From positions 14,668,761-14,732,760 of the forward strand of contig OY540818.1 in NCBI GenBank assembly GCA_961205875.1: a DNA stretch of 64,000 nucleotides, given 5' to 3'. Origin of the DNA: Sialis fuliginosa. Lineage: Eukaryota > Arthropoda > Insecta > Megaloptera > Sialidae. How positions within the stretch are numbered: position 1 is the stretch's first letter; each line of letters begins with the position of its first letter. The notes under the pieces were generated by a model, which worked only from the letters and a program-made list of their open reading frames with translations, ran no database searches and was not told the DNA's origin. This document shows positions 10,321 through 38,890 of this stretch, in pieces. The position numbers and the translations under genes are program-made.

Positions 10321-10330
10321 ATTGTTCCAG
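10321..10330 (+). other. Splice acceptor before the Elk exon
   Basis: ATTGTTCCAG ends in AG exactly where composition changes from AT-rich to GC-rich. It implies an upstream non-coding exon whose position I cannot identify. The alternative is transcription starting nearby with no splice here. Confidence 0.55.
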
Positions 10331-10364
10331 GATAGGCGCTCACAGGCGGCCTCAGGCCTTCTCG
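10331..10364 (+). other. Probable 5'UTR part of Elk exon
   Basis: GC-rich, 34 nt, in frame with the Elk ATG and without stops. If the acceptor is not used, an in-frame ATG at 10317 would add 16 residues. The family start supports 10365 instead. Confidence 0.55.
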
Positions 10365-10440
10365 ATGCCGGCGAGGAAAGGCCTTCTGGCTCCTCAGAAC
10401 ACGTTTCTGGATACAATTGCAACCCGATTTGATGGCACCC
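10365..10440 (+). CDS. Elk: ELK-type voltage-gated K+ channel, first coding exon (partial)
   Basis: Encodes residues 1-25 plus one base of codon 26 of an Elk (KCNH3/4/8-like) potassium channel. The translation begins [14 protein letters not shown] and ends TRFDGT. The [15 protein letters not shown] core is the N-terminal PAS cap of EAG-family channels, and the TIATRFDGT end is the ELK form as opposed to eag or erg. In the family the cap and the following PAS domain sit in the cytoplasm and tune gating of the tetrameric plasma-membrane channel. The exon ends at a consensus GTAAGT donor after 76 coding nt (phase 1), the position I recall for vertebrate KCNH exon 1. The exon is strikingly GC-rich against its surroundings. 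The ATG at 10365 is chosen because family members start with MPA/MPV at this distance from APQNTF. The PAS domain, six transmembrane segments, pore and cyclic-nucleotide-binding homology domain must lie in later exons not seen here. Confidence 0.93.
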
Positions 10441-10446
10441 GTAAGT
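10441..10446 (+). other. Splice donor of Elk exon 1
   Basis: GTAAGT matches the donor consensus perfectly. The preceding bases, ACCC, leave one base of the next codon, so exon 2 must begin in phase 1 (His or Arg expected; family His). Confidence 0.9.
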
Positions 10447-12496
10447 TGTATATATATATTTAATAAAACCTTCTTTTGACACCTCCTCCTTATATCGTGC
10501 TACCTGGGACGGACCAACCTCCATCCACACTGATTTGTGTTATTTTTTAGAGAACCTATTCTAAATTCACAAAAGAAAAAACATATTTTACTCTCTGAAA
10601 CTGCAATAATATAATTTTGGACTGCAATGTAATATAAATTGATGGATTAACTGCAAACATTACAGCCTAAAATTATATTACTACAGTTTCAAATGAAAAA
10701 TATTATGTTTTTGCTTACTATCTGGGATAGACAGGAAAACTGTAATTTTTACAGTAAATTTTTTTCTGTGTAGTTTTAATTGTTGATTATTTATTAATAT
10801 TATAAATAATGGACTACGAATACATAATTAATCTTGTACATATTAATTCTATTAACATAATTTCAATCAAAATATTAAATTCGATCACCCATTCCATTAT
10901 TAATTAAAAATCAATTATTGGTATTTTGATGTTAACAACAATGGTACATAATGATTTCGTTTGTGTGTATGTACAAATTGCATAAATTAAAAACAAAATG
11001 GATATTGATTATTATAAATTAGAATATTTAGCAGATAAATCATTCTATTCAGTATTGCAATAACGATTTAAAATTGCAAATTAAAAACTTTTATAGGTCA
11101 TCTATCCACAAAAAAACAATTTATAACAGAAGTGATTCAGGATAATCGAAAACTATTTTAGGAACTATAATCAAAAAGTGCTTAATTTTGTTTTTTAATT
11201 TAGCTTATGTAGACAGCCTGGACTATAATGTATTTGCTTGTATTAATTTGATTGAAATCACAATACTCTGGAATCTGAAAGAGATTGACAAGTCTTTATT
11301 GTGAGTTTGGTCCAAAAAACGGACAGAAATTAAATAAATGTTTATGGACAGTGTTAAATATATGATAAAATTCGGCAAAGCACTAAAACCCTTGTTGAAT
11401 TCCGGAATACAAAAATACGAATTTTTAAAAATTATAAAAAATTGGGTTTTTTGCGTTTTGTAAATCAATTTTGAAGTATATTGATTTTTTTATATGTTGA
11501 ATTTAACTTCTCACATAATAAAGGATTGTTAATATAATTATTAACCAGGGGGCTAATTTTAGTGAAACCCGTCTTCTTCAAAATTATAATTATGATTTCA
11601 TATTTAATTTAAAAAAATGAATAGAGTAATTTATATGTTTAAATATAATACGACAATAATCATCTTTAGAAAATAAAAAGGTTGAACTTAAATTTTCGAC
11701 GTAGCACACGTGGTATTAAAGCCTTTATAATAATAAAATATGAAGATTGTTCTGTTCTAGTCTCCGAAGTAAGTTCCTTGGTTACCAGTTTTTAATTTTA
11801 GGTACATATTTAAATTAAGAACATATTGTACATAATATATCATTTATATATTTCTGGCATATTTTACGACGAATATAAAAAATTTAATATAAAACTCGAA
11901 AGAATATATTAAATTTCTGTCCAATGTATGCTACAATTTTGTTGGATCAGTCCGTTTCTGAACGTCGTTTGTATGGCAATATTCATAAATGTGTATTTCA
12001 TAACATAAAATTGTGAACCTGCTATGATCTGGACAAATAAACAGGCTACTGAATTGAATCGATTCAAAAGAGAATTCGTCGGGTGATAAATAAACCTATG
12101 TATTTTTTCATGATGTCTTTGATGATTATTTATGTTGTAAAAATATTAAACCACCACCATGAGGAAGATATACAGAGCTGTATTTTGAATATTTTTAATA
12201 CTCACCAACAATATTGTATTAAATTACAAAGCAACAATTAATTCTTATAATAGTACAAAAAAATATGTTTAACTTAATTCGTCGCCACATCGAAGATATG
12301 AGAAGCTTTGTGATCGTTTTAAAATGAGAAAAAAAATTATTCTCGATTATAGTAGAAAAATAATTATTTACTGCAAATAATATAGTAAATTTATTATGAT
12401 ACTTATTAGTTCAATAATGCTTGAATACGTGTACAAATAAAATAACTAACTCAGTTATTACGGGATTTCCCTGACCGTCTGTTTAGGCACAGTACA
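10447..12496. other. Intronic AT-rich stretch, no gene seen
   Basis: GC stays moderate to about 10540, then falls. The 71-codon minus frame at 10315-10530 is the complement of the Elk exon and its flank. A minus frame at 11223-11468 has no motif. Confidence 0.55.
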
Positions 12497-12770
12497 TGTA
12501 ATAAATGTCTCTTAGGTTCAATTGAACTACAAATGTACCAAGTCTTATCAAAATTAGTGAGATAATACTCGCAGACGATAAAAGTTACAAAATTTCGAAT
12601 ATTTCCAAAACCCATAATCCGATTAGCACCAAAATCAATAGGTCTGGAGTACTCACTGAGACAAACATTTTCCCCAAAAATAATTCAGATCGGTATATTT
12701 TTACAGTAGTAAACGATTTTTTCGACGGTATTACAATACTTCCATTTCTTTCAGAACATGAAAGTAAAAA
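12497..12770 (+). mobile_element. Dispersed repeat family D, longest copy
   Basis: Shares AGGTTCAATTGAACTACAAA, CCAAGTCTTATCAAAATTAG and ACAAACATTTTCCCC with 25985-26210. Its end, TTCCATTTCTTTCAGAACA and AAGTAAAAATG, is shared with 55563-55621. The palindromic GGTTCAATTGAAC and the companion GGGTGA..TCACCC motif at the second copy suggest a non-LTR retroposon. No frame. Confidence 0.75.
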
Positions 12771-13351
12771 TGAAATTAATAACTTATATTACTTCTATGA
12801 ATCAAACACTTGCTAGATAATTATTGAAGATTATAATTATCTTGATAATTTTGCACTTTGAAATTTACACACATCAGTAGATGCAAATATTATAACAAAT
12901 TTTTGTTATAATTTGGAATTCTGAATATGCTTTGATGGGTAAAGGGAATACCAACACGATAAAATGTTTTTATAGTAAAAATACTTGATACCAGTAAAGT
13001 GTTTTTTTAACAGCAGAGGCATTAGATAAAAGCGAACTGTTTGTTATGAATAAATATTGATTTTATTGCAATAGTGTTCGGTATCGATTTGTGTGTTTAG
13101 GTATAAAGAGTTTTGATGGTTTTTTTATTAAATTTTTCCTATACACATAACATGTTCTCATATTTACAATAAACTGTACAGAGGCAATAATTATACTGAG
13201 TGTGCAGTTGAATTGCTGTCAAAAGTTACAATGTTTATAGAAAAATTATTTTTCATTCTGTTTTATTTTGTTATTTATGTTTACTTTTTATTGCAATAAG
13301 AGTACTTCATTAAGGTAATTGTTTTATTAGATCCGGCGGGAAAAATACCAC
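12771..13351. other. AT-rich stretch, no gene seen
   Basis: Nothing recognisable. Confidence 0.5.
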
Positions 13352-13600
13352 GCATAGGAGCCGAGATATTTATGATTTTTTCCGACTTGATTTACTATTA
13401 TCGTCACTGCTTATTCCTTATGTTACCTAACGTAACAAAATATATAGTAGAATTTGGTCAGAGAACATATCTATGAATTAAATGAAAAAAAACACGTAAA
13501 TCGGATAATTGGTTCTCGAGTTATAAGCGCCCGAATGGACAGACAGACAGACAGAGAGACGTTGCGTTTAATAATATATTTATATACATAGGTCCTGCAA
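13352..13600 (+). mobile_element. Non-LTR-type tail with GACA tract
   Basis: CACGTAAATCGGATAATTGG, then TTCTCGAGTTATAAG, then (GACA)n at 13538-13560 and a TTTAATAATATAT end. This order is typical of insect retroposon 3' tails. The ACRTGTAAATCGGATAA..TTCTCGAGT part recurs at 38845-38890. Confidence 0.6.
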
Positions 13601-13796
13601 TTATCAATATCTATCAATAAAGGTTATATTTTATTTTTGTAAAAATACAGGTACATTTGGTAGCAGTAATAAACAAAAACGAATTACGTGAAAAAGATAA
13701 ATGAAAAACATTACACAAATATCACAACGGTATCCAATTGTCGGGAAAAACTGTGCACTTTGTAAACATATGTCACCATAAAACTGTAAACCGTGC

Positions 13797-13880
13797 AGAT
13801 ACACATATGTACAAACATATATGCATTGTATACATATGTATGTATACATTTGTATATACGAATATATGTATATGCATATC
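13797..13880. repeat. Low-complexity CATATGTATGTATAC-rich DNA
   Basis: Overlapping CATATG, GTATAC and ATGTAT steps give open frames on both strands (13631-13894 minus, 13738-13965 plus). I consider these composition artefacts. Confidence 0.7.
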
Positions 13881-14244
13881 AGAACCTTGCACAAAATATT
13901 ACATAATTATCCTTTTAACACAACCTACGCTATACATTATCAATGGTACACTCTGTAAAGTGTAAATATGCATACAGCTTGCTGGTTACATACATATGTA
14001 TGTATTTGTACAGCGAAATATGGAAATGTAATGTTAAAATACACCCCACAAAAATAAATAAACAATATGTCATTGTTGCGTTTTATTCTTAATAGTTATG
14101 TACCTATTTTATATTTTAGTTATTGTTTTGATTTTACCTAAAGTCTCGCTCATGACACGATTTTACGCACATAATAATAATAATAAATGTGATTTCTAAA
14201 ATATTGTAAAACTAGTTTTTTGTTTTATATTTATTAGGATTAAA
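13881..14244. other. AT-rich stretch, no gene seen
   Basis: Contains a short (ATA)n run at 14170-14186 and otherwise nothing recognisable. Confidence 0.5.
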
Positions 14245-14422
14245 AGGGTCGATCTAGTTTATCGTGCCAGTCCCGATCCAGTCTCACTCCAGTCAAATAT
14301 AAATATACAATAAATAATGAAATCATTCACACTATAGGTATCGCTCAGGTCTCGGTTCAATCACGCTCCGATACAACATTACTATACTGAATATTTGACT
14401 GGAGCAAGACCGGATCGACCCT
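14245..14422 (+). mobile_element. MITE family G, complete copy
   Basis: Terminal inverted repeats AGGGTCGATC (14245) and GGATCGACCCT (to 14422), with inner inverted parts CCAGTCAAATAT / ATATTTGACTGG. Related copies lie in the opposite orientation at 18336-18442 (truncated) and 63575-63745. All share the AATCATTCACACTATAGG-like core. No coding frame. Confidence 0.8.
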
Positions 14423-14879
14423 ATAAGTATAAAATATTACATATATTTATTGAGAAAATTTAAATACTTCCTATGTAATTTGTAAATATAATTATTAGTA
14501 CAAAATATGTACATTCACTAATTATTTAAGAGTAGTAACTTATCTTTTATACTCATGAATGAAATGATTTATTAATAATAGAGTGAGCCATACAATTTTA
14601 TTGATATCAATTACTCAAATCTGCTTTTTGTTATTGTATGGAAAGGACAAATATAGTTAGTTAACGATTATATTTTTCAGGAAACAAAAAGATTTATTGA
14701 AAGAATATTTACAAATATATTTTCCAATTAGGTATAATATTTTGATTTAATAACTTTAAGAATAAGTTATAATATTTATATGAAAATTATTTCATTTAAA
14801 ACTGTATGTAAATAATATATCGCTATGTATTTCATGCACAGAATTACATCATATGTAAATTGTTCCTTTATTTCTCTAG

Positions 14880-14924
14880 CGATAAGAAGTCATTTGTAGA
14901 CCCGCGTGACCTAAAGGTCATAGT
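14880..14924 (+). other. Candidate 45-bp exon or GC-richer patch
   Basis: Preceded by a good pyrimidine tract and AG (CCTTTATTTCTCTAG) and followed by GTATGT. The enclosed 45 bp reads DKKSFVDPRDLKV in one frame, less AT-biased than neighbouring chance frames; that frame runs open to 15195 (111 codons). Spliced after Elk exon 1 in phase 1 it would instead meet a stop, so it is not an in-frame Elk cassette. It may be a poison exon, an exon of another transcript, or chance. Confidence 0.25.
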
Positions 14925-14930
14925 GTATGT

Positions 14931-16918
14931 ATGTAGGTTTTCATATTTAAATTCTGTAAATTTGCATTGTGGGGATAAGTTTGAAACCAGAAATATATTT
15001 TTGTCTTTCGGAAGGTCAGTGTGTGCAGTGGAAATGTATAAAAACGTATATAGAACGAGGGTTGGTTTATTTTGGAAATGTTATTGTTTCAGCGATTACG
15101 TATACTTATATATTTTATACAGACTGATTCAAAAGTTTATTATTCATATGAAATACAATGTATTTTATTTTATAATCAGACAAGATATTTTTTAATCCAC
15201 CAAAAAGGATAGAATCAATACAACGATATACAACTAGTATTAAAAAAATTAACAGTTTGTTTGATATTGGAAATCGATAACGCGTATTAATAATAAACCG
15301 GTTATCAAATTTAAAAATTTTACCACAGTGGGTTCTCTAGATATTAAATTTGGGCAAAATTTTTGGAATTTCCGAACACATGTTCACATATGATTTTTTA
15401 CTTAAAATTACATCCTCGATCTACTGTTAATTTTTTATTACATTAGTTGTAAATCATCCTGTTTATTTCAAATTAAATAATAAACAAGAAACGAAATATT
15501 CTAAAAAAAAGAAAATCAGGTATACAAAATAACTGACACAAAACAAATCGTTTATGTTTGTTGAAATTTAATTCGTATTTACTAAAATTAAACAGACCTT
15601 TTGTGCGTTATACAAAATGTCTGAAGGCGGAACGGAAAGACTGTTCTGTATATACTCGAGTATTTTCGATTCGGTTTTAGAATCGGAATAACATAATATT
15701 TAGAGTATAAACTAGCGATTACTACTACAGAGTAACAGAGCCTGTCGCCTCGAGCGACTGACGCGTGAAAATTTAACTAGATATTATTTTACAATTTAGG
15801 ATACAGCACAACTTTGTTATGTTCGAATGAAATTGATTTTAATATCGATACTGAATTTATTTTTCTTGGTTTATTAAAAATCGTTTATAATGGATATTAA
15901 ATACAATCCACTGAATATTTTTTTGTATTTTGCATTGTATTATATTCAACCGAATTTTTTTCGCTATACATATAATACAGAATATAGTAAACGACTGTTA
16001 ATATGAACATGAAATATGTCATACATAAAAAGCACAAAATTGTTTACAAAAAAACCGTTAAAAAAATTAAACACCGTTAAAACCATATTAATATTTAAAT
16101 TTAATTTTAATAGTTTCATTTGTTATTTGCTTCTTATAGACAACAATTTCAATAATACATATTATAATTATTAAATGTGAATTTTCCCCATTTGTTAAAA
16201 TTGAGATAATACAAACACTTATATACATATATATGAAATGTCTATTTTCAAATATTAACTACCCCATTGACAAATACAATTCACATATGAAATTACACTC
16301 TTTTATTGTGGTATTCATCAAAATTCTATTCAGTGAAGTGTCAGTCATTCGTCAACCATTGACCGATCATTAGAAATAATTGATATCTGAAAATATCCAG
16401 AATCCCATTTATATTTTGAATGGTGTGGTCAGAAAATCCAATCTGCAACTTAAATGAAATGTACATATGTACGAATATGTTCAACCGCATGCGTAAATAT
16501 AATTATTTTTATATTAAACAAATATTATGTTTCAATATACAATATTTGCTAGATTATATTTATTCATATGCATATAAACAAAAACATATGTAGATAGTAC
16601 ATAATTGATTTCACAAATGGAAACACAAAATGTACAGTCGATTGCCACTAGAAAAATGAATACCCTTATGTAAATTTTACAACTCAATAACTTACATATG
16701 AGGCGTTCAGAACTAAAGTGGATCTTGTTCAACTTTTTTAAAACCCAGTTTTGGGCTGATTCATATTTTCTATGCGATACACATTTATTTGGAGATTAAA
16801 AAAAATTTAATAATGAGTTATGTCTCTTTTTTACACAATTTATAAAAAAAATATTCTTTTAGCGTCAAGAACAAGTGTAGTGAACTAAAATTAAATAAAA
16901 CGGAGGCACACAAGTGAT
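14931..16918. other. AT-rich stretch, no gene seen
   Basis: A slightly GC-richer patch at 15600-15770 holds small stems (GTCGC CTCGA GCGAC, 15742-15756; CGATTC..GAATCG). No family or frame recognised. Confidence 0.5.
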
Positions 16919-17110
16919 AGGGTTCCGTAGTCATTCTCACTACGAGTTATTTCAAAAAATTTCATACAATTTTTTTACATCAATGTTCGTTATAATTTTC
17001 ATTGAAAGTACTAATTAAAAGCTACATCATCTTAATCGGTATAAAATTTATATAGACAGACGGACGGACAGAGCGAAACTATAAGGGTTTATAGTTTTTT
17101 ACGGAACCCT
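16919..17110. mobile_element. Element bounded by AGGGTTCCGTA inverted ends
   Basis: AGGGTTCCGTA at 16919-16929 and TACGGAACCCT at 17100-17110 are exact inverted copies. An internal AGACAGACGGACGGACAGAG tract precedes the end. This arrangement is common in insect, notably lepidopteran, repeats. No frame. Confidence 0.7.
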
Positions 17111-18335
17111 AAAAATGTTGAAATAAATTTACATCAACATAATATGATGATATTAAGAAATTTCATCCTAAAGTATCTAATTGTAGTAGACGATCTAGCT
17201 TGTCGATCATTTAAAACCTGAATATAATAAGTTTAATTATCTGGAGATTTATATGATGTATGTAGCTATAAAATAAATACTACAATATAAATGTAAAACC
17301 ATATCCGTTTTACTGCAACAAGTGAAGTATGCCTTGAGTTCTTTATATCAAATATTAATGTTCTAACTATAACGTTTTTACTTTTTCTAAATGTGTTTGA
17401 AAATTTAAAAGATAAGTTTCAAAATGATCTTGAAATAATAATAGTGTGTATGGAACTTGAAAAACTTCCGCTAAAATGGCCTAAAAGCAAACATGAATAA
17501 ATAAAACAAAAAACGAACCTTTTGCATGTTAGAAACCACTTTCAAGATGGTAAAATCAATAAATATTACTATATGAATAAGTACATAAATAAATAATCAC
17601 AGTACATACCGGGAAGTTGATTTAACATAAGTACATATGTATATATGTTACATATTTAAATCTTTATTGACAGTTTTTAAGGCAGTGTTGCGGTGTGACA
17701 ATTTAAAATGCTCGATTTTTTTTCAAATCCATATTTAAAGTATAAGTAGATACTATAAAAATTGTAAAAGAATTGTAGAAGAGAACGGACAGTGTTAGTG
17801 TAACATCTGTTACTAAATCTTTAAACGCGTTTTGTATACATACTTATTTTAATACCAACTTATTAACAAATCATAGTTTAAAAATGAAAATTAAATAAAG
17901 AGAGTTGGTATGAGGAAAGTTTGATAACATAAGATTTATTCAATACCTCCCCAAAAATATTTGCTGTTTGTTAATTGAAAGTGATTGAAAACTGTACCAA
18001 TAACATGTCTCCATACGTACGAAGCATATGTAGAATAAACATAGAAACGCGTGAGAAGTTTCTGTAAGCATCTCGTATTGTTTGAAGTGTTGAGACACAT
18101 GACGCTTTCTATCCATATAAACAATTCCCTTATAAAAATACTTGTAGTGCGTACCTATCGCAAATATTATCTATATATTAAATATAATCTTCTTGACATA
18201 AGTTCTTGGATTTCATTTCCTTTATTATTATTTGTCAAGATTCATTTCAAAACTTCACTATTACACTTTTACTTTATTTTCACATTTTGATAGCATAATG
18301 TCTTCTAATTGTAAGTAGTATTATAATACTGTATT
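17111..18335. other. AT-rich stretch, no gene seen
   Basis: Overlapping chance frames at 17936-18124 (minus) and 18051-18290 (plus) have no motif. Confidence 0.5.
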
Positions 18336-18442
18336 GACCTGAGCAATACCTAAAGTGTGAATGATTTAATTGTTTATTATTTATTTATATTTGATTGGAG
18401 CGTGACCGGGCCGAGATCGGTTCGATAGTCTGGATCGACCCT
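18336..18442 (-). mobile_element. MITE family G, truncated copy
   Basis: The reverse complement starts AAGGGTCGATCCAGACTATC and follows copy 14245-14422 to GCTCAGGTC, where similarity stops. The distal terminal repeat is missing. Confidence 0.75.
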
Positions 18443-19123
18443 TACTATTAATCTCTTAATGGAATTGTCTTATTATGATACGGACGTACCTTTGATATAA
18501 ACAAATTTTTACATTGGGAAAACTCATTTTCTTCGAAGAAAAAAAAACATGAGAATGAACTTCTTTATATATTAATAATATATATGATTTATATTGTAAA
18601 GATTTTGTACTCGATAAAAACTGAACCAAAATCATTCTACAAAATATAATATTAACTGTTTTAAGGCGACTATAAATTTAGCAATCATGTTTTTGCATAA
18701 ACTAAATATAGATATTGATGAAAAAAAAAGTTAATTTTAGTCGAGAGTAAATTGCTTTTAATATTTCGTATTCGATATAGATACATATTTATTTGTATTT
18801 ATTTTATTGTTAACTACATATAAAACTAGGACTGTTTGTCAGTTAGGGTGTTGTACTTTTCTGACAGCAAATTTTTATTTTTTCCCTACTCCTTGAAAGG
18901 CTTTTCCTGCGAATCTGAAAGTATATCAAAACATATGCTCACAAATAAACTATATTGTATATCTTATAATGATTAGTTAATTTTCTAAAATATAATTACT
19001 ATAATTTTGTAGAAAAAAATACAAACAAATAATTGAATATAGGAAGTGTACATTTCATATTCTAACATCAATTTCTATTAAAAATATAACAAACTCGAAT
19101 AAAATTTTTATAAATTATTAAAT
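18443..19123. other. AT-rich stretch, no gene seen
   Basis: Nothing recognisable. Confidence 0.5.
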
Positions 19124-19577
19124 TTGCTGCTACAAGTTTACTATAAACACACATGCACGTTACTGCCGTATGGTCAAGTAGAAAATACAAACCCCAAGAG
19201 AAGAAAATTGATAAGAATCGACAAAAGAAATCATTACAATGAATTTGTTCTCAATTCGGTACAAGAGGAAGAAGCGATGAAGGCGGAAGGGGGTAGAGTT
19301 CATTTTTAAGAGTGTAATGCTTTTGTGCGAGTTAAAAAGCAATACTTCCGTTACGGATGATGTCATCGTTGCCACCTCCGCTGGGCAACATAAGGTCATT
19401 CTCCCTTCTTTCTTCTCGATACCATCAACAAACGTCCGTTCTCTTTCGCGTCATGTTCGCATCAAGGAAGGATATCAAGTTGGCGACTATGCTAGTGATG
19501 ATCTACGCGAAATTCAGTCAATTAAGAAAATGTGTGAAATAACCCTCCCATCTGTTCATAGTATTTTATTAAGGTAA
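19124..19577 (+). other. GC-richer, stop-poor block (unassigned)
   Basis: Composition rises sharply for about 450 bp, and overlapping frames stay open on both strands: + 19124-19309, + 19317-19577, + 19357-19542, minus 19160-19399. The longest, 86 codons, has no family motif that I recognise. It ends at AAG|GTAAAT (donor at 19574), which could terminate an exon, but in a phase that does not match Elk exon 2. It may be an alternative 5' exon or promoter, an exon of a nested gene, or an old insertion. Confidence 0.35.
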
Positions 19578-19724
19578 ATAATTATAGTTCATTTCTGCCT
19601 TTTCCAAATAGAGGTGCCTAATGGATTAACTTAACGAAAAAATTGATAAATGAGATTTATGAGTTCTAGTCTACAAAAATAATTTAAAAAACAAAAAGCA
19701 AAAAATATTTTTTTGAACCATTTA

Positions 19725-19873
19725 TAGAACAGTAACTCCTATTATATTTATATGTTTTTTATCTAATCAATTTTCGAGCCAAATTTTATCAAGATCGGTT
19801 CAGTAACTTAACCGTGAAAAGGTAACAAAAAAAAAGACAGATAAACACACTTTCGCAATTATAATATTAGTAA
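19725..19873 (+). mobile_element. Non-LTR/SINE-type tail, second copy
   Basis: TTTTATCAAGATCGGTTCAG, GGTAACAAAAA..GACAGATAAACACACTTTCGC and the TTATAATATTAGTA end match the tail of 5056-5393. Confidence 0.75.
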
Positions 19874-20210
19874 GAATTATTTAGTAAAATTGTAGAGTAA
19901 ATTCCCAAAATTTATTAATTTTTTTAGATTATACCTATAACAGAGTTCTTAACTACTCACTCACAATCAGTTTTATAAAGAATTTCATTTTATTTTTGCA
20001 ATAGATCAAGAAATTAAAAAAAAATGTACTAGAGAAACCGAAATAAAATCCATTAAAAAAATAAAGTAAAAATGTATTTTAAAATACCTATATTAAATAT
20101 ATTTTAAATGCTTCAACTATATTTTACTTATTGTTTATTTATACGTGAAGCAAGCGAAAACACGTAATACAAGATACATATGAAACAAATCACGAATAAC
20201 TACTCATTAT

Positions 20211-20460
20211 CAACACGTAGGGGAGGCCAACTTGACAAACGTCAATCAAAGAGACCTCGTCTGACTTTGATTTGATCAGAGAATGCGACGACGACGACTC
20301 CGGTCGTCATGACGACCGCGAGACAGCGACATACGGCCTCTAAATATCGCCACCCCCTCCACTTCCATCAGTACTGGAACTGGAACCCCCATACGCTCAC
20401 TACCGACGAGATCTTGTGTCTGCTGGAAATACATTTGTAATTCAGGTTCTGCTAAATATA
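20211..20460. other. CpG- and GC-rich island, possible exon or regulatory block
   Basis: The most GC-rich block outside the Elk exon and the transposons. It contains an 18-bp perfect palindrome, CGGTCGTCATGACGACCG (20301-20318), and two CTTTGAT motifs on opposite strands (about 20253-20275). On the minus strand 20434-20276 an open frame of 52 codons runs to TGA. It starts MYFQQTQDLVGSER and ends in an Arg-rich tail (SRRRRIL), with an AG after TTTCC at 20423-20428 that could be an acceptor and AATAAA (minus) at 20139-20134. I do not recognise the product. It could be a terminal exon of a minus-strand gene, a + strand promoter or 5' exon, or a conserved enhancer. Confidence 0.35.
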
Positions 20461-23060
20461 CCTATATGCATATGCACATGCGATATGACGTATTTTTCGT
20501 AACAAAATAAAAGTATTTTTATATGTTTTTATTTGCATCTTAAATTATACAAAAAAATTGTCTTTGTGTTTTTGGGGGTCAAAGAATCTCTTCTCGTTTT
20601 ATTTCAATAATTTGTATGAAGAAACATTCGTATGAACCATTTCTAAAAATTTATTGATGCGTAAATTAAATGTCTTATTTAATTCTGTATGTTACGTTTA
20701 ATTCTACATGAGATCCTTTTATGTATATATGAAGTTCTTACGCTCACGAATGTTTCTGTTTTAAACTGTTTAATAAGGATAATTGTCTTGTAAACAAATT
20801 GATAACCACCTTTGCATAAATAAAACAACAATAACGTATTTAATTCAATTTTATTTAAGTGAATTCCCGCAAAATATGATTTAATGTGACAATTGTTTTG
20901 GAAACAAATATGATATTGTAATACTATTTACAGTGATATTTTATAGAGTAAAATATATTATAACTTGTCAGTAAAGATACAAACTTTGAGGCTTCTTTCT
21001 TTCTTATATTATATTTTTTAATTCTTATAATAATTAATTAAGACGTAGATTTTTCAAAATGAAATACCAATATTTTGTAGGTGCTTTAAATGGTTGATTA
21101 ACAAATAGAAAGTTATTATGATAGATGAATATTAATAATTTATTTTATTTTAAGACTCGTGAGCTTGAAATAAATATCATCTAATATTGACGAACGATGG
21201 TACTTATTTTTATTAAACTATGCAATTTTTATGACTACTCGTATCTCAACAGGTATAAATAATGCATCTTTAGTACGTCATAATTTTCTAATATACATAA
21301 AAATATTTCTATAGAAACTTTTCTTCTTCTTGCTTATATTATTACATTTTTTATATATTAATATGAATGCAAAATACCCTGTAGTTAACAATAGCGTTTG
21401 CTTTGATTTTGTTTTAGAACAAATCGTTTATAATATCAGAATAAAAAATGACTGTAACTGGTGAGATGCACAGTCGAGGGAATGACGTGAATACGTAGCA
21501 GTTATTTCTTATGATTTATACGAACGAACAATTTGTACGACTCCCTACACACAAGATAATCTTTAAATTATATGTACTGTATACATCTTAATAGCCGGAA
21601 CTTTAAGAACATAAAACATATATAAAACAAAATTTATATTTTATTATAGATGTAGAATGTGGGTATTCAATATCTAAAAGAGAATATCTGTATTATTAAA
21701 TAAATATTGCTGATGGCAAGAAACGACACTAATTAATACAAATTACAGTCCTTGCTTTAATAGGGTACAATAGCATTATATGTAATCGGAGTTAATTGAT
21801 AATAACTTTGCAAAATATAATTATCTGATTATTTGTATTGTTATTTCAAATGTAAAATAAATATTTGCCAATTATTCAGTTTATTGGATTTTTAATGCAC
21901 TTATTTTATTTAGTACTTGATGAAATCAACGTAAAGCTGATAATTATTAGATGAAAAAAAGAGCACTAATATCAAAAATATTAAATATAAAGTATAGAGC
22001 AGGGGTTATTTTAAGAAAAATTTTCAACTGCAAATACCTTTGTTACCTACATTTTGTATATTTCTCTCTTACAAATTATAGTGACCTATTTTTTGATCTA
22101 CTAATCTAAAATTGTGCCAATCTCAAATAAATATAATAGCATCAATCCCCTAAAACATTAAAAATTTCTCTTAATGAGTTCAAGACTGGTGCCGTTACCT
22201 TATCTAAACGTATTATTATTTTATAAAATAGAAAGTTATAGTAATTGTATCAATACGATGGCATTTGTATTAAATTTAAAAATACTTTACATCCACATTC
22301 CAAATGTCGTTAGTGGGTTAAAAAATGGGTTATAAAACTTTATAAATAATGTAATCATTTGAGACTTAGATGTGCCGTATAAGTTATTACATACAGTAAG
22401 CGATTAAAAAATAATCACTTTCATTTTATATACGACGTGGGAGAAATTGTTGAGATAATATAAAAGTGTTTTATAAATTATGCAGTCTACATATAACAAA
22501 GAAAAAGAATAAATAAAAATGATAACTTTATCGGAATAAATTAACATAAATTTTTAACTTCACATTGAAAAACTAAATGGTTCCTTTACAAAGTCTGTTT
22601 GTCAGTTTTCTAATATTTATTTAAAGGTCTTACTCGTTCAATAGAATTTTCAACCACGATTATATTTTTCGTTTCTCGATGCATAATTCAAGAAATAAAC
22701 TCGACAAAAAATTAATCTTCTATATTGAAAACCAATTGCCATTCTTGAATGATTAAAGGCATACAATTTAAATATTATTATATTCATGCAATTTGAAATA
22801 AATCACTGGTTTGATTTAAATTCAATTTCAATGTTCAATATTATTATTATTTTAATAATATCCGTCCTCTTAATAATATACAAAAGATGTATTTACATAA
22901 CATAGGGCCGGGATGGGGAAAGGAAGATCTCTTAACGCCTAAATGACGATGTACTTTAACAATTAACTATTGAGGGGGGGAGGGTAATTTTTAGGTTGCA
23001 GAATTTTTTTTATTTTTTAACATACAAATAAATTCATCTACTAGTTATATACTTCTATAT
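20461..23060. other. AT-rich stretch, no gene seen
   Basis: About 2.6 kb of plain AT-rich DNA. ACTGGTGCC at 22189 resembles the end of family B but is too short to assign. A G-tract lies at 22974-22980. Confidence 0.5.
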
Positions 23061-23110
23061 CAGTGGCGAAGCGTCCATGGAAGCAGGGGAAGCATTGCTT
23101 CCCTTACTTT
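23061..23110 (+). mobile_element. hAT-type terminus
   Basis: CAGTGGCGAAGCGTCCATGG followed by the self-complementary GGGAAGCATTGCTTCCC (23087-23103). CAGTGGCG is a typical hAT terminus. The opposite end was not found before the large palindrome. Confidence 0.45.
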
Positions 23111-23254
23111 ATGTGTAAATTAATACAAATCTGTGTTTTAAGTTAATAAATAATTTAAAAATAGTATTAGAATATTCGTCTTTATGCGCAACTCAAACAT
23201 TTTAATCAAAAATAGCATTTAACACGCTCAGTTATAAAACTATAATACCTCTAC

Positions 23255-23991
23255 GTCTTATTTTCTTGTATTTTAGTCGATATTTGTATGACGAGTTGAA
23301 ATTCACTGCAGGAAATTTCACTAAAAAATTTTGAATTTTTGATTTCGTTAAAAGTATGTTTATTGTATAGAAAATGACGTGAAAAGTTGTTTGTTTCAAA
23401 CCGCAGGTCTGTAGCTCAAACCGTTCTCGAGATATAGCCTCTCAAAGTTTTAGTTTTTTCAAATTTTTGGAGAAAAAAGGCCATAACTTTTGAACGTGTG
23501 GTCGGAATTGATTTTAGTTGACGGATTTGGAATCAGCATGTCAAAATCTATATAATGACATGTATAATACTTTAAAATCCGAAAAAAAAATTTTGGTCAA
23601 AAATCGACATTTTTTTAAGGTATACCCCTTTGAATTTTTTCGATTTTTCGTGAAATTTTTTTTTTCAAGTTTTAAGGTATTATACATGTCATTATATAGA
23701 TTTTGACACGCTGATTTCAAATCCGTCAACTAAAATCAATTCCGACCACACGTTCAAAAGTTATGGCCTTTTTTCTCCAAAAATTTGAAAAAACTAAAAC
23801 TTTGAGAGGCTATATCTCGAGAACGGTTGGAGATACAGACCTGTGGTTTGAAACACACAACTTTTCGCGTCATTTTCTATACAATAAACATACTTTTAAC
23901 GAAATTAAAAATTTAATTTTTTTAGTGATATTTCCTGCAGTGAACTCCAACTCGTCATACAAATATCGACTAAAATATAAGAAAATAAGAC
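23255..23991. repeat. ~737-bp near-perfect palindrome (family P)
   Basis: The left arm from GTCTTATTTTCTTGTATTTT is repeated inverted to the right arm ending AAGAAAATAAGAC, centred near 23622 at GTATAC. The arms are almost identical over the outer ~300 bp, including GTCGATATTTGTATGACGAG, TCTCGAGATATAGCCTCTC and GAACGTGTGGTCGGAATTG. They diverge only in the innermost ~60 bp. The mirrored 62-codon frames at 23518-23706 and 23541-23729 follow from the symmetry and are not genes. Partial relatives lie at 35399-35650, 52333-52392 and 10030-10062. Likely a foldback-type MITE; transcribed, it would make a hairpin of about 360 bp. Confidence 0.9.
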
Positions 23992-25941
23992 ATTTAAGAG
24001 ACAGTATTTTTAGATTTGGATATGCGAATTATAGGGACAATAAAAAATCAAACAATTATCACTGCTATAATAATAATATTCAACATCCACCCATTGTGTT
24101 TTATAACGAGATATGACTGCATTCAATAGAATAAAGGAACGCATATAATTGATAATTAGTTAAACCGCTAAACAAATTCATTTAAAGTACTGTGTTGTGT
24201 GGAATGTATAATTGACGAAGGTATAAAAAATTCAAATAAAAGTCTTTTATGTACAATATATCTGTATGTGTACTTTTAATTGTATATTTGAAAATAAATT
24301 ATTCACAAAGAAAGAAAAAAAAGGATATATAGTATTATATAGTATGTAACAAAATGTAAAAACTAAATAAGTAATTTTTTTTGCAATAAAAAAGTTTATT
24401 GTTCTTTTTGTGACAGTCATCTATGGTAGACCCTGCATGCGTTCCTTCAAAAGAAACATTTTTTTCTACAACTGTTAAAAACGCATTGTTTTACAACCTT
24501 ATTTTCGTACGAAAAATTGTAATTTTATGCCGTGTTTACACCAGAAAGACAAAACAACAACTAGTTGTTCTTAAATCAATTCAAAGGATGTACTGTTTTT
24601 TTACAATCGAAGATAAAAGTATCTAATATTAAATGACACAAATTATAGCTAAAGTTGTTAATTTATATATATGAAGCTAATTTTCCCTCCCCTATGACTG
24701 TTATACATATGTATATGGTTAAATTTGTAGATTTTAATATAATATAACATATTTTTTGACATTAATAATTGTTTTGGTTTTTATTTTTTTAGGGTTATGC
24801 AATGAATTTATAAGATTTTTAACTATTCAGTTTTGTAAGGAAATTCATAACGAAGACAATGATTTTTTAGTTTTGCAATCCGGCCGATAGAAATATAGAT
24901 ATTTTTAATATTGTACAAGAAAAATCGAAAAAAAAAACAGTCCAAAATAATTATCACCCAAAGTAAAGATTTCAGGTGATGCCTAGAACAAGTTCATAAA
25001 GAATTTCTCCTTCTTTTCAATTCCTTATAGAATTTTGTGTAGAATTTCAATAAATAGAGCACTTCCGGCGAGTTATCTCATTTACCGTGTATTAAAAATT
25101 CGATTTTCAATATCCAATTACTCAAAAACTAAACATCCAATATTTAAAAAAAAAGTAAAATATAATGAGCTATCCATAAATAACATATTAAAATTTTAGA
25201 CTTTTATCTATACGCTGCTCTAAAATATCTTATGTATCTTAAATATCTATGTAATTAACCTTTCATCCTCAAAATATAATATATTCATCTATACAATACA
25301 TCTATACAAACATATAAAATATGTATACCACCTTTATTTAACATTAAAGGAAATATAGAAAGCTTTATATGAATAAACCAGTTAACAATATCTATATAAA
25401 ATGTTTATTCCCACTTCTCGATCTTTGTCACTTTCAGAAATTTCTCTCAGCCACAAGCAACAAGCGTCGGGTAAACAACGGTAATGATTATATAAGCAAG
25501 CACCATACAATTACACAATTTCACTTATGCATAAAGTTCTAGCGTAGCTTCACACGACTTAAGCTCTAAAAGCTTCAACATTCCCCAGGAGCTTTATATA
25601 CGATCGTTACATCTCTTTGAAGATTCTACATTGTACTTCGATCTACTGCTGTAGTGGACATTGCTAAGCTTTTTAAAGGGGTTTAGGAATATTTTGTAAG
25701 CTATTTACTTGAATTTTTCATACTGTATTAAGTTAAAAATATTGTTCTTGAATATCTTTTTAAATAATTTTTAATACATGAAAAATTTCAATGGGATTTG
25801 TCAGAAATAAAACTCACTTTTGTATTATAAATATTAGTTTTCTAATGTCCTAATGTCAAAAACATAATACACATTCGTAGAATATATCTAATTTGACAAT
25901 TTGAATTTAGTTGCATTTGTTTCCAAGGAAACAAAATTTTG
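23992..25941. other. AT-rich stretch, no gene seen
   Basis: A 67-codon + frame (24423-24626) has no motif. Nothing else recognisable. Confidence 0.5.
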
Positions 25942-26210
25942 AGGGTGATTTTCACCCTTTCAATAGTTGTTTAAGTACGTACAAATAATAAATGTCCCTT
26001 AGGTTCAATTGAACTACAAAAATACCAAGTCTTATCAAAATTAGTGAGACAATACTCGCAACGTTCACTTTTAAGACGATAACAGTTACAAAATTTTGAA
26101 TATTTCCAAAATTCATAATCTGATAAGCATCAAAAGCAATAAGTCTGGAGTGCTCACTGAGACAAACATTTTCCCCAAAAATAATTCAGATTGGTAGTAA
26201 TTCTTAAACT
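25942..26210 (+). mobile_element. Dispersed repeat family D, second copy
   Basis: AGGGTGATTTTCACCCT (25942-25958) lies just ahead. From 25985 the sequence follows 12497-12720 closely, to CAGATTGGTAGTAATTCTT. Copy 1 lacks 13 bp present here (ACGTTCACTTTTA, about 26060). Confidence 0.75.
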
Positions 26211-26212
26211 AG

Positions 26213-26265
26213 GATCCGCGGTTCCCCGGGGGGCCGCTGAACTTTTTCCGAGGGTCCGTGTTAAA
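26213..26265. repeat. Isolated GC-rich repeat fragment
   Basis: AGGATCCGCGGTTCCCCGGG then GGGCCGCTGAACTTTTTCCG. It abuts the truncated family D copy and resembles hAT-type subterminal DNA, without a confirmed end. Confidence 0.3.
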
Positions 26266-26699
26266 AAAACTTTTACATTTCTATTTACCAGTGATTAATC
26301 AATATCTAATAAATAATAATATATTAAAGACATCTACTAGCCGAGTGTACTGGCATGTTTAAATACCCCTTTAGTATAAACTCTCTTACAAGCATTACCC
26401 AACGTTAAGCCCGCTTACTGGCGTTGTTTTGTGAGTAATATATCTTTTATAGCCGGTGTTTTATTGGATATTAACATTTATGAGATAAATTTGTACGATA
26501 CATTGTATCTAAACTAAGTTAAGTTTTACTATGAAGAGATGTATACCTACATAATACCTATATTATACAAAATAATAATATACATAATGCAATTTTGATT
26601 TAAACGACATTTATAAATATGAATATATTACATAATATACATAAACTAGTGTATTGAATCCATTGTTACCCGAGAATATAATTTTAATCAGTAATAAAC
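26266..26699. other. AT-rich stretch, no gene seen
   Basis: Nothing recognisable. Confidence 0.5.
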
Positions 26700-26935
26700 C
26701 TACTCAACATTGTTTGTTATTTACGCAGCGCTCACAAAAGTACCTCTCCGACGGTTGTCTTTTTTGACACAAAATATCCACAAAATCTACAAATTATAAT
26801 TTGAACCTTCCTCGAGAACACTCTTTTCATTAGTGAAAACCGAAATAAAATCCGTTCAGTAGTTACTGGGAAAATTGTGCACAGCGAGAGACAAACGTAG
26901 CGAGGAAATTTGTTTTATACTATGTATAATAAAAT
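26700..26935 (+). mobile_element. Insect non-LTR/SINE-type tail
   Basis: AAATAAAATCCGTTCAGTAG then GCGAGGAAATTTGTTTTATA is a common insect retroposon tail pattern. No frame. Confidence 0.55.
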
Positions 26936-26960
26936 GCTATTGATTATCCTTTTCATTTTC

Positions 26961-27180
26961 GCTGACCCGGAAAACGCTGTTCTGCACAAAAATAATTTGT
27001 TTAAAAATCAAATCATAAATACACATTTTCGTAAATATCTCGATTCTAATGCCACCTACTGGGTCTATTTTTTGTAAAAATATTTCATTCTACGTAACAA
27101 ATTGAACCATAAATACAATTTATCGAAATATCTTGACCCCAGCGCCACCTACCGGATTCAAAAAAAATATTATCTTATGA
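26961..27180 (+). repeat. Dispersed repeat family H, copy 1
   Basis: Opens GCTGACCCGGAAAACG..GTTCTGC. It contains two diverged units about 94 bp apart (CATAAATAC at 27014 and 27108), each ending in a GCCACCTAC.GG motif. Copy 2 at 58688-58911 has the same order. GCTGACCCGGCAAACG-type heads are frequent in insect retroposons. Confidence 0.7.
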
Positions 27181-27610
27181 GAGTAAGAAACATTTGGTGT
27201 GATATGTCCAGTGGTTTTTTGTACGTTATGTAAAAAGATTTAAAATACCTCACAGATATAGAAATCATCATTATTGTTTGCTATAAACAAATTTTAATAA
27301 AACAGAAATCTATACAAAAATCTCGATATATATATATATACATAAGTATATGTGAAACGTACCTAGAGAAAAATCTTCCAGTTTTAAATTAAAACGCAAA
27401 AGTTTTCAAACATTAATTTGAAAGATATCGTTTTTCAAATATGTTCTTACTTTGATATATTTATTTATTTACTTCAAAAATATAACTTAGAATTACTTTA
27501 ATTTAGAGTTCTTCTGAACTTTTTGTTTTTTAATGTTTACAGTTTTTGCATATTTAAATCTTAATTAATGATTTTGTTTATATTACAACATTACTTATGT
27601 ATACTAAATG
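27181..27610. other. AT-rich stretch, no gene seen
   Basis: Short (TA)n run near 27325-27341. Nothing else. Confidence 0.5.
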
Positions 27611-27783
27611 CAGTGGCATACCTAACCCTGAGTGAGCCGTGTATCAAAATTTCTTGGGGGGGGGGATTTATTATAATTATAATGGACAAAAGTTTTCCTG
27701 CATAAAATATATTTTTAATTTAAAATGATGTAAATAGTATTTTGAAAATATATATAATATAATATTTTTTTGCTACGCCACTG
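27611..27783. mobile_element. Small hAT-type MITE
   Basis: CAGTGGCATACC (27611) and TACGCCACTG (to 27783) are inverted ends of the hAT type. Flanks ACTAAATG / ACTATAAT match at 5 of 8 positions, a possible decayed target duplication. A run of ten G lies at 27656-27665. Confidence 0.6.
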
Positions 27784-29248
27784 ACTATAATATACAATGT
27801 CCGCTACAGCAGAAACCTCAAACTTTATTGAATTTTGGCTAGTATTCATTATCCAGGAATTTTATTCAAAAGTCAATTAACTAAAATAACAAAGGATAGA
27901 TAATCAACTGTGAAAATAGTTTCCTCCCATTAGTTCATTGTAATTTCATCAAAACTTTTAATGAACTATGTGAAGAGAAACTTTGAATTGAGTCAAAAAA
28001 TTAAATCTGATAACATTAAATAGAATACCGCCATTAATAACTTGGAAATGGGTTTCTTACAAGTAGTTAATTTATTTTAATTTCATGTATACTGTTTTTA
28101 TAATTATAATCACGATGGTTTTAGAAATCTTTCTTCTTTAGTTTGACTTTTGCTTTAAACTATAATCACATTTTATCAGAAAATAATATTAAATAAATTT
28201 TTGTATAGGTTCATTAAATACTAAACTATTTTACTACTCTATTTTACCTTATTACTTCAATCTATAACAGAACAGTCCCTCTTTTCACAAAGTCCTTTTG
28301 AATTCTTGTGCAAATAAAAGGTAAAATATTACATATTGACTATATTTCATTTTTCATTTCAGTTTTCCTACCCACGTATTTAAAAATAACATATAATTAT
28401 TCGACCAGAAGTAAAAGCTTTTGATGCTTACAAAAACGCAATGTTACTATAATCATGTGCATTTTATATAAAACTTGATGGGTCGGTGCAATATGGATTA
28501 TTAATCTCAAAGCGCTAGGTTGTTCTCATTAACAAGCATGCAGCTACTTTTTAGAATTGTGAATTTAAATTATAGAGAATAATATATAGGCATATGTATT
28601 TTACGATAAAAACGTGTGATGCATAAAAAACAGTATATTTTAATTTCAAATAATCCACACAGCTTAATATAAACGGTCCTAACATATTGTTATCAGAACG
28701 TAGCTTTTTATGTGAATGACGTATGGTCATTTTTCATATCCGATAATAACAGTGACGTTCCATTGATTGAGCGGTTTTAATAACCGAATTAGAAGAGACA
28801 GCGAGCGTAAATTCAGTTCCGCTCATTGGTTGTTTTTTAAAACAGATGCTGATATATGATAGCTTGTGCCACTATTATATTATTTTAAACGCTTTATCAA
28901 GGGAAACAATTATAGTACTGCCACAATTATGTATGAATTTTTTTTAATAGTAATGTAAAGATGAAGTTTTATAACTTTCAATTTCACTGAAAATTTTCAC
29001 AGGCGAGTGAAAATTTTTAAATTTTTGAAAAGTTTTTTTGTACGACTTACTTTAGTTGAAGTAATACAAAACAATACGCAAATTTTAAAAAGTAACAATA
29101 TATTTCTATATTCGTTTTGGAATTCGTTCGGGAAGTGGATGAAAAATTGGTTACACGTTTTAATCGGAACGGACAAAGAAGTCCAGTTAATAAAATTGTA
29201 AAAAAATAAGTAAATTGTGTATTACAATATAAACGTCCCAAGAAAAGA
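27784..29248. other. AT-rich stretch, no gene seen
   Basis: Includes a moderately GC-richer part at 28690-28850 with no recognised motif. Frames at 29007-29201 (plus) and 29047-29259 (minus) have none either. Confidence 0.5.
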
Positions 29249-29345
29249 AAGATCTGCATTTTGAGACAACATCATACTTTTGATCTGTGGAGACCTGCAA
29301 AGATCTACAACGATCTACAAAGATCTCTGAAGATCGCTATAACAT
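29249..29345 (-). repeat. Dispersed repeat family A, inverted short copy
   Basis: Reverse complement reads GATCTTCAGAGATCTTTGTA.., then TGTCTCAAAATGCAGATC, as in 621-758. About two 20-bp tandem units remain instead of four. Confidence 0.75.
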
Positions 29346-30395
29346 TGAAAATTCATTAACTTTCAGCGTTGAAATTTCATGAATTTAATTTAAAAATTAC
29401 CTTATCTAATTTTTATATTTTTGAGTATAATAAGTACTAGCACATTTGATGTAAATAGATATAAATGTAGCAATAAATAGCTACTCGGTATATTCCGCAG
29501 TTTCCTTTCAGTAGCTTGTTTGAATGTGATCAGTAGGCGTGCGAGTGTGACGTCAGATGTCAATAATTATCAACTTGTTTCACAGACTCTATAAACTAGT
29601 CTAAACCGTACTCTTGCGGTTTAATTTGGCAACACTGTATATACCTTATTTGAGAATGTTGGTATGAGGTGTTTATTTTATATATTGTGTTAATTTTTTT
29701 TATAAACGGGTAGAAATTAATTAATTTTTAATAGATACGTATAAAATTGATCCAAAATAACATTCTTTATATTTTGTATAAGGTTATTTGGAAGCCCGTA
29801 TATAACCACTAAACGTTTTAATATTTATATTTAATATTATGTACATTTAACAATACATATTTGCGTTCGTACATTGTCCCTTAATAAGGGTTTCAACTAC
29901 ATATAAAAAATTCCATATGTATATCGAATAAAGTTGTAAGTACATATGTATGTATATCAAAACAAAAATACAATCTATGTTTAAGTTCTAAGTCTACTTT
30001 TATGATTTTTTCGGGACAGACAAACAATTTATTTGCTCGTAATTTTATAACTCGAAATATTATCATACTTTAACCATATTAGACATTTTTAGACATTCTA
30101 AATTCATTAAATAAAATGTTATCAAATTCTTCCTCTGTATCACAGTTATGAACAGCTTTTGGTGTCAAACGGGTTTCTAAAAATTAAAATATATCTTAAG
30201 TGACGCAATACTTTGTGTTCAATCTGTTTATATTTTTAGGGACATAAATGGTCGATTCCGCAGAAAACTAGAAGACAGTTTTGGACGTCACCCTCACGGA
30301 ATTTTATTAAAATTTGTGACATTAATTTTTAATGTTTCTTAATACCAAAAATATACGTATTTTCTTTGATATATTAATATGAACTACTAATTAAC
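29346..30395. other. AT-rich stretch, no gene seen
   Basis: A patch at 29500-29640 with GGTTTAATTTGGCAACACTG resembles a repeat end. No copy found in the window. Confidence 0.45.
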
Positions 30396-30434
30396 GTCCG
30401 GTATTATAAATAAACTAACAAATAAGCACTTTCA
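30396..30434 (+). repeat. Fragment of dispersed family I
   Basis: GTCCGGTATTATAAA followed by GCACTTTCAA matches the start of 53182-53300. A TIR element begins exactly where similarity ends. Confidence 0.5.
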
Positions 30435-30709
30435 ACAGTAAGTCCTCGACTTAGACGATTAATTCGTTCCAAAGGTTTCCATATAAGTCGAGGAGTTACT
30501 GTAGCAAAAAATATAACAATCAGTTTTGTAAAACAAGTGAACGCAGCAGAGAAAATGTTTAAAATTGTAAACAAAATGCACCAACTCAATACTAAAAACC
30601 CTAAAAAATATATAAATGGCCACGGAGATATAAAGCGCCGAGAAATAAAAAAAAACACTTTTTTCAAATCGCATTAGTATGAATTCGCGTAAGTCGAGGA
30701 CTACCTGTA
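30435..30709. mobile_element. TIR element of the AGTCCTCGACTTA type
   Basis: ACAGTAAGTCCTCGACTTAG (30435) and TAAGTCGAGGACTACCTGTA (to 30709) are inverted ends. An internal TAAGTCGAGGAGTTACTGTA (30484-30503) repeats the end. Such ends occur in insect Tc1/mariner-like MITEs. Minus-strand frames across it (30404-30667, 30459-30737) show no transposase motif. Confidence 0.65.
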
Positions 30710-31688
30710 AAATGTATTTGAAAAGTTCATGTAGCAATTTAAAATAATAGTAAATATCATCGGTAAAGGGTTTGTATCATATATTCAGAAACGTTCTATA
30801 ACACGTGATTATTGTGCAATGCCACGTGAATCAAATTCATTCTTCCAAGAATTTATAAAACTTACATATACATATATGTACATCATACAGTCGTTCGTAA
30901 TTTATGAATTCTAAAAAAAGTATTTATTATAATATCAAATATACATATTTGAATTATTCATACTGGATTATATTCGTTTTATTTATTTTCCTAACCCTGT
31001 AATTATTTAAATTTGCAGTAAATCGATGGTAATAAATTAATATTTCATATATCGGTGAAATTAACCGATGGTTTTTTGATACATTTATTTATATTTAAAA
31101 TCCATTAGATATATGCAAGTAAATATTTATACTTACCACTACTTAAGATTTTTATAAGATTAATCTTTTATTTTACAAAGAATTACATTTGCTGAATTTG
31201 CGGATAAATTCGTGTGGTCCATTACTTATAATTCGATATTTTGAACATATTTCAGCTTCAATCTTCAAATTAAATGTTTTTAATGGTATATTAACCCTTT
31301 CACTGAAAGGTCTTCAACGACTTATTTATGATCTTGCTCTGTATTTTATAAATCATTTTCAATTAATTCAATATTTCTTGTAAATCACAAAATACCTCAA
31401 AATGTTATATTGATAGATGTGACTTGAGAATATTCAATTGACTGACATTTCTAAGTTTAAACTATTATTTGTCAGATTTAGTTTCGTGCTCTAGTCGGTT
31501 ATTAATGATTTGCTATTTGTACAAATAGTTTCGGTTTGTTATAGTTGACAATATCTCGTATTTGATTGTCTAAAATACACCTCAAGGTCTTCTAAATAAC
31601 ATGGCAATATATGACTGAAATGTAATTGTAAGATTTATTCACTATTTTTATTCATAAGGAAATATTTGTTAAAAAAATCATTAGTAAG
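30710..31688. other. AT-rich stretch, no gene seen
   Basis: A 64-codon + frame (31189-31383) has no motif. Confidence 0.5.
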
Positions 31689-31690
31689 TA

Positions 31691-31979
31691 CAGTAGCACC
31701 TCGCAATAACGGCAATTGGATCCGGACCCTCGTCAATAAGTAAAAACGCCGGTAAGTGAATTAAAGCTTTTTTTGTGCCTCGCGAGTACCTACAAGCAAA
31801 ACTACGTTCTATATACTAATATATGTATATTAAGTTTGCAATAACAATAACTATAAAATAATGATAGAAAGGAAAATTTACCCCTCCCCCCTTTTAAATA
31901 TATATTAAGTACGTACAGTATACGATTTACAACTGAAAAAGAAATGGAAATATAACGCCGTTATTGCGAAACGCTACTG
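31691..31979. mobile_element. TA-flanked MITE, CAGTAGC..TCGCAATAACGGC ends
   Basis: CAGTAGCACCTCGCAATAAC at the left and TTATTGCGAAACGCTACTG at the right are inverted. TA sits immediately outside both (31689-31690, 31980-31981), as expected for Tc1/mariner-like insertion. 289 bp, no frame. Confidence 0.8.
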
Positions 31980-31981
31980 TA

Positions 31982-37787: not shown

Positions 37788-37873
37788 ACTCTTAAAAATA
37801 TAATAATAATAATAATAATAATATATAATAATATAATAATAATATATAATAATAATAACTCTTAAAAATATAA
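37788..37873. repeat. (TAA)n microsatellite inside a 16-bp direct repeat
   Basis: ACTCTTAAAAATATAA occurs exactly at 37788-37803 and 37858-37873. Between them is about 54 bp of TAA/TA repeats with interruptions. Looks like a segmental slippage or duplication. Confidence 0.85.
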
Positions 37874-38844: not shown

Positions 38845-38890
38845 GAAAATAAAACTCGGAAAAAAACATGTAAATCGGATAAGAAATTCT
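38845..38890 (+). mobile_element. Short non-LTR tail fragment
   Basis: ACATGTAAATCGGATAAG and TTCTCGAGTGATGA match the 13480-13525 part of the element at 13352-13600. Confidence 0.5.

What the first reader, a model, noticed from the sequence alone, without database searches (positions are those of the whole stretch)
10331..10440. Single Elk channel exon in a 64-kb repeat landscape
The frame [20 protein letters not shown] between a splice acceptor and GTAAGT identifies the first coding exon of an ELK K+ channel. It anchors the whole window as Elk 5' region plus a very long intron. None of the long open frames of the window would reveal it; the only frame over it is on the wrong strand.
Basis: partly seen in the sequence, partly recalled or inferred. 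Interest (0 to 1): 0.7.

Follow-up and report, generated by a model that had tools for sequence, protein, structure and literature searches.

The report
First coding exon of Elk channel
A short, highly conserved stretch in an otherwise gene-poor window is very probably the first protein-coding piece of an ordinary Elk-type potassium channel gene, set off from the rest of the gene by a very long intron; it is a correct but unremarkable gene-annotation call.

Summary
Window 10331-10440 (+) lies between an AG and GTAAGT and holds an ATG (10365) followed by [25 protein letters not shown] plus one base: 76 coding bases, a phase-1 donor. The peptide is the PAS-cap of KCNH (EAG-family) K+ channels. 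It matches the Drosophila Elk PAS chain 15 of 15 over residues 11-25, against 10 of 15 for hERG (counted). 0 of 50 and 0 of 200 shuffled windows reach its score. The donor lies exactly where human KCNH2 intron 1 begins: exon 2 of that gene starts at c.77, Ser26 (PMC12251465 passages). This argues against a retrocopy. No other KCNH exon was found in the window; planted 77-residue PAS exons were found in 200 of 200 trials, shorter diverged pieces less surely. If the gene is intact, intron 1 is at least 53.56 kb. That the rest of the window is only Elk 5' region and intron is likely but not shown; the genome search did not complete in ten tries. The likely role is the gating cap of the channel's N-terminal eag domain. 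Ordinary orthologous exon of a known gene; low interest.

The parts
10331..10440 (+). First coding exon of an Elk (KCNH3/4/8-type) potassium channel gene: 34 bases of 5' untranslated sequence plus 76 coding bases
   Evidence: sequence and translation; phmmer against PDB KCNH chains; tblastn and shuffles
10365..10440 (+). Coding part: [25 protein letters not shown] plus first base of codon 26; the PAS-cap of the eag domain
   Evidence: PAS-cap described in PMC7515569 passages and in the start of the PMC5016179 abstract (listing)
10329..10330 (+). AG of the putative splice acceptor of a 5'UTR intron (usage not shown)
10441..10446 (+). GTAAGT splice donor, phase 1, after coding base 76; same position as human KCNH2 intron 1
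   Evidence: PMC12251465 passages
10441..64000 (+). Inferred part of Elk intron 1 (at least 53,560 bases to the window end), with no detected KCNH exon
   Evidence: tblastn with planted-exon controls; continuity of the gene is inferred

Best explanation
Window 10331-10440 is the first coding exon of an intact orthologue of Elk (Kv12-type KCNH channel). Shown: it encodes the 25-residue PAS-cap and ends at a consensus phase-1 splice donor at the intron position also found in human KCNH2. Inferred: it is spliced over an intron of at least 53.5 kb to the exon encoding the PAS core. The encoded PAS-cap then sits on the PAS domain (residues 14-21 form an amphipathic helix on the beta-sheet in the fly Elk crystal structure) and, with the PAS-CNBHD contact, tunes deactivation and voltage-dependent potentiation of the channel, probably in neurons.
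For: Peptide match to 17 distinct PDB sequences at E<=10, all named as KCNH or Eag-like channels, the best at 1.2e-05 with a 25-residue query. 15 of 15 identity with the fly Elk chain 4hp4 over residues 11-25, against 10 of 15 with hERG (counted from the alignments). Window scores above all of 50 shuffles for both queries and above all of 200 for fly Elk. The GTAAGT donor falls after coding base 76, and human KCNH2 exon 2 begins at c.77, in codon Ser26 (PMC12251465, passages). The exon is GC-rich (58% against 29% in its flanks) and has no second copy in the window. No stop or frameshift in the coding part. Function from passages of PMC7515569 and PMC3598652.
Against: No PAS-core, transmembrane or CNBHD exon was found in the window, so continuity with a channel gene is not shown. 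Pfam finds no family for the 25-residue peptide alone (probably too short for a domain model). The start codon has T at -3, a weak context (sequence; judgement recalled), and the acceptor is of ordinary strength. No transcript data, and the species is unknown.
Confidence: 0.9

Rival explanations
1. An isolated or duplicated genomic copy of the Elk first exon (segmental duplication or pseudogene fragment), with the working Elk gene elsewhere.
For: No second KCNH exon detected in the 53.5 kb downstream; repeats lie close by on both sides: 10064-10238 matches 39767-39947 at 81%, and 10573-10716 matches its own reverse complement at 73%.
Against: Coding sequence without lesion and identical to fly Elk over residues 11-25, an intact donor at the position shared with KCNH2, and GC well above the flanks. 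A processed retrocopy is very unlikely because homology ends exactly at the donor.
Confidence: 0.07
2. First exon of an Erg- or Eag-type KCNH gene rather than Elk.
For: The stretch [10 protein letters not shown] is shared with hERG, and hERG gives the best E-value in the phmmer list, where the Elk chain lacks the first residues.
Against: Residues 18-25 are IATRFDGT as in fly Elk; hERG has IIRKFEGQ. Eag chains score lower (KCNH1 and KCNH5, E 0.0057 to 0.2).
Confidence: 0.02
3. Chance open frame resembling a channel N-terminus.
For: Short (25 codons).
Against: 0 of 50 shuffles reach the score (maxima 25.4 and 25.0 bits against 35.8 and 40.8); 0 of 200 for fly Elk (maximum 28.1); 0 of 100 shuffles hold the DNA pattern.
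Confidence: 0.005

Closest known systems
Drosophila melanogaster Elk (PDB 4hp4; PMC3598652)
   Same: Identical in all 15 residues that can be compared ([15 protein letters not shown])
   Different: The first 10 residues were removed from the crystal construct, so they could not be compared; the fly gene's intron position was not examined here
Human KCNH2 (hERG1), exon 1
   Same: Exon boundary after 76 coding bases, phase 1; 16 of 25 residues identical (my count)
   Different: Erg-type residues among 19-25 (IRKFEGQ against ATRFDGT)
Vertebrate Elk channels KCNH3/KCNH4/KCNH8
   Same: Recalled, from no call: nearly the same start, [20 protein letters not shown]
   Different: Not compared by any tool here

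Membership tests
   length range from the start of the PMC5016179 abstract
KCNH (EAG) family | PAS core, S1-S6 with pore, C-linker and CNBHD | tested here: inconclusive
   None detected inside the window (PAS controls, no control for the transmembrane and CNBHD exons); they would lie beyond the window end, and the own-genome search did not complete (ten tries)
Elk (Kv12) subfamily | Elk-type residues in the PAS-cap (IATRFDGT against IIRKFEGQ in hERG) | tested here: met
Elk (Kv12) subfamily | Placement with Elk in a tree of the S1-CNBHD core | not testable with these tools
   Core exons are not in the window
KCNH family gene structure | Phase-1 intron after codon 25 (human KCNH2 c.76/77) | tested here: met
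   and PMC12251465 passages; one human gene only
Expressed gene | Transcript joining 10440 to a PAS exon | not testable with these tools
   No RNA data

The most novel reading that the evidence does not exclude
The PAS-cap exon, flanked closely by repeat remnants and cut off from the rest of the gene by more than 53 kb, is optionally used. The animal would make two kinds of Elk, with and without the PAS-cap, by choosing between this start and a downstream one (for example at the unexplained GC-rich island at 20210-20440), setting the channel's gating speed at the level of promoter choice.
Probability: 0.04. Interest if true: 0.35.

Novelty: already known. Interest (0 to 1): 0.1.

Why it matters
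It is a useful annotation point: a 76-base coding exon that an ORF list misses, and without which the predicted channel would lack its gating cap. The intron position shared by this Elk exon and human KCNH2 fits an intron older than the split of the Elk and Erg subfamilies (two genes only). Neither point is surprising.

Tried and rejected
Search for further Elk exons: tblastn with the fly Elk PAS, hERG PAS and a recalled Erg S1-CNBHD sequence. Apart from the exon, the best match was to the fly Elk PAS, minus strand 24487-24368, 25% identity, gapped, 25.8 bits, E=0.020. It lies just above the best of the first 50 shuffles (25.4), but 3 of 200 further shuffles reach 25.8 bits, and with composition-adjusted statistics it falls to 23.9 bits, E=0.10. 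It also runs through the codon-25 intron position and is on the other strand. I take it as chance, though I did not exclude an old degraded copy.

Sensitivity limits: PAS pieces of 77 residues with 20-50% of positions redrawn were found above 30 bits in 200 of 200 trials. Pieces of 40 residues: 50, 50, 49 and 40 of 50 at 20, 30, 40 and 50%; pieces of 25 residues: 49, 47, 35 and 19 of 50. A PAS core cut into very short, diverged exons could therefore escape.

Other GC-rich spots (20210-20440, 50455-50540, 57140-57450, 19281-19577, 63578 and 9185) were read as candidate exons. Pfam gave no family above its cut-off for 10 chosen reading frames, one of them the exon itself (best non-significant E=0.09); the other 9 are 9 of the 62 frames of at least 70 codons, so 53 were not scanned.

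A 48-residue frame at 56911-57054 looked to me like the start of a PIF/Harbinger transposase (recalled); Pfam and PDB found nothing, so that stays a guess.

Rfam 0 matches at gathering scores, ARAGORN 0 tRNAs. A back-translated pattern of the exon core has 0 exact matches in viral contigs and in genome contigs, as expected for an animal gene. The species could not be settled: I lean to an insect by recall of repeat types, but no call shows it.

Papers: passages seen in PMC7515569, PMC13398235, PMC12251465, PMC3598652, PMC9989356 and PMC4299485 (not relevant); PMC5016179 and PMC5440166 only as start of abstract in listings. The listings (20 of 137 papers shown) show no paper, by title or abstract start, about this intron position in Elk genes. 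That is no claim that none exists.

Full report
What was claimed.

The sequence reads ...ATTGTTCCAG|GATAGGCGC... at 10330/10331 and ...GATGGCACCC|GTAAGTTG... at 10440/10441. The first ATG after the acceptor is at 10365. From there to 10440 there are 76 bases, coding [25 protein letters not shown] plus one base. The frame is closed by stops at 10293 upstream and 10461 downstream, so it is a 55-codon open stretch on the plus strand. Frames of 123 and 74 codons run over it on the minus strand, so an ORF list with a usual cut-off shows only those; no ORF of at least 120 aa with a start codon exists in the window. The exon is 58% GC against 29% in its 500-bp flanks.

It is not chance. As a 25-residue query the peptide finds 17 distinct PDB sequences at E<=10; all are named as KCNH or Eag-like channels, the best at 1.2e-05. 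In the reverse direction, tblastn of the hERG and fly Elk PAS domains against the window gives the exon at 40.8 and 35.8 bits (repeated). The best of 50 dinucleotide shuffles is 25.0 and 25.4 bits, and for fly Elk the best of 200 more is 28.1. A degenerate pattern of the core is found once in the window and in 0 of 100 shuffles.

It is Elk-type. Over residues 11-25, which is what the aligned fly Elk crystal chain 4hp4 offers, 15 of 15 residues agree; hERG agrees in 10 of 15, and in 16 of 25 over the whole exon (my count on the alignments). The C-terminal part IATRFDGT is the Elk form; hERG has IIRKFEGQ. That vertebrate KCNH3/8 start nearly the same way is recalled and was not tested.

The exon end is the strongest structural argument. 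Human KCNH2 exon 2 begins at c.77, the second base of codon Ser26. PMC12251465 reports the intron-1 variant c.77-2del, in its table 'the canonical splice acceptor site of exon 2', and lists c.77G>T as p.Ser26Ile (passages). Exon 1 of KCNH2 therefore ends after 76 coding bases, phase 1, exactly as here. GTAAGT is present only 13 times on the plus strand of the window, so its presence at this one phase-1 position is unlikely by chance. A retrocopy would run on through this point; homology stops here instead. The shared position also suggests that the intron predates the Elk/Erg split (inference from two genes only).

The rest of the gene is not in the window, as far as the search can tell. The second-best match to any query is a 25.8-bit, 25%-identity stretch on the minus strand (24487-24368); 3 of 200 shuffles reach that score and it weakens to E=0.10 with composition-adjusted statistics, so I read it as chance. 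Planted PAS exons of 77 residues with 20, 30, 40 or 50% of positions redrawn at random were detected above 30 bits in 50 of 50 trials at each level. Shorter planted pieces are less certain: 40 of 50 for 40 residues and 19 of 50 for 25 residues at 50% redrawn. The controls cover the PAS domain only, not the transmembrane and CNBHD exons. If the gene is intact, intron 1 runs at least from 10441 to 64000. Whether other genes or promoters lie inside that stretch is open. The own-genome search did not complete in ten tries, and no transcript data exist here, so 'the whole window is Elk 5' region and intron' stays an inference.

The surroundings fit an intron with old repeats. The stretch 10064-10238, about 90 bp upstream of the exon, is 81% identical to 39767-39947, and 10573-10716, about 130 bp downstream of the donor, matches its own reverse complement at 73%. 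Further two-copy families and an inverted repeat with 297-nt arms at 23324-23923 are listed. Rfam and tRNA scans are empty.

How it works. The exon encodes the PAS-cap. In fly Elk, residues 14-21 form an amphipathic helix that packs on the PAS beta-sheet (PMC3598652, passages). In cryo-EM structures of hERG and rat EAG the PAS-cap points toward the S4, S4-S5 linker and C-linker, and in ELK channels it affects voltage-dependent potentiation and the dynamics of the intrinsic ligand (PMC7515569, passages). The exon boundary at codon 25 thus lies close to the boundary between cap and PAS core. Shown here: the sequence, its homology and its exon geometry. Inferred: splicing, expression, an intact channel and its gating role.

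Verdict. The object is a normal orthologous exon of a well-known channel gene. It is neat as an annotation exercise and of low interest as biology.

Noticed in passing
20210-20440: GC-rich island with no second copy in the window and the highest local GC of the window (59% over 110 bp at 20281); CpG o/e 1.22; several short frames open on both strands. It showed no KCNH match in the tblastn. Could be a promoter, an exon of another gene or a conserved element.
   Followed up: partly
23255-23991: Long palindrome: 297-nt arms, 91% complementary, 6 nt apart, flanked by 85-nt arms; a related stretch lies at about 35395-35632. Looks like a foldback or MITE-type element.
   Followed up: no
10064-10238 and 39767-39947: Dispersed repeat pair, 81% identical, one copy about 90 bp upstream of the Elk exon.
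   Followed up: partly
56911-57054: 48-codon frame (RFWLSNHIKERPLRGEYRLFYDL...) that resembles, from recall, the N-terminus of PIF/Harbinger transposases; Pfam and PDB give no match.
   Followed up: partly
19788-19872 and 57808: Sequences that recall 3' tails of insect non-LTR elements (ATCAAGATCGGTTCAGTA...TATAATATTAGTA; CGAAGCCGCGGGC); each pattern once in the window. Identification is from memory.
   Followed up: no
24368-24487: Minus-strand stretch with weak similarity to the start of the fly Elk PAS domain (25.8 bits, 25% identity); reached by 3 of 200 shuffles, so probably chance.
   Followed up: yes
1-64000: CpG observed/expected is 1.21 over the window, so there is no sign of CpG loss by methylation.
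   Followed up: no
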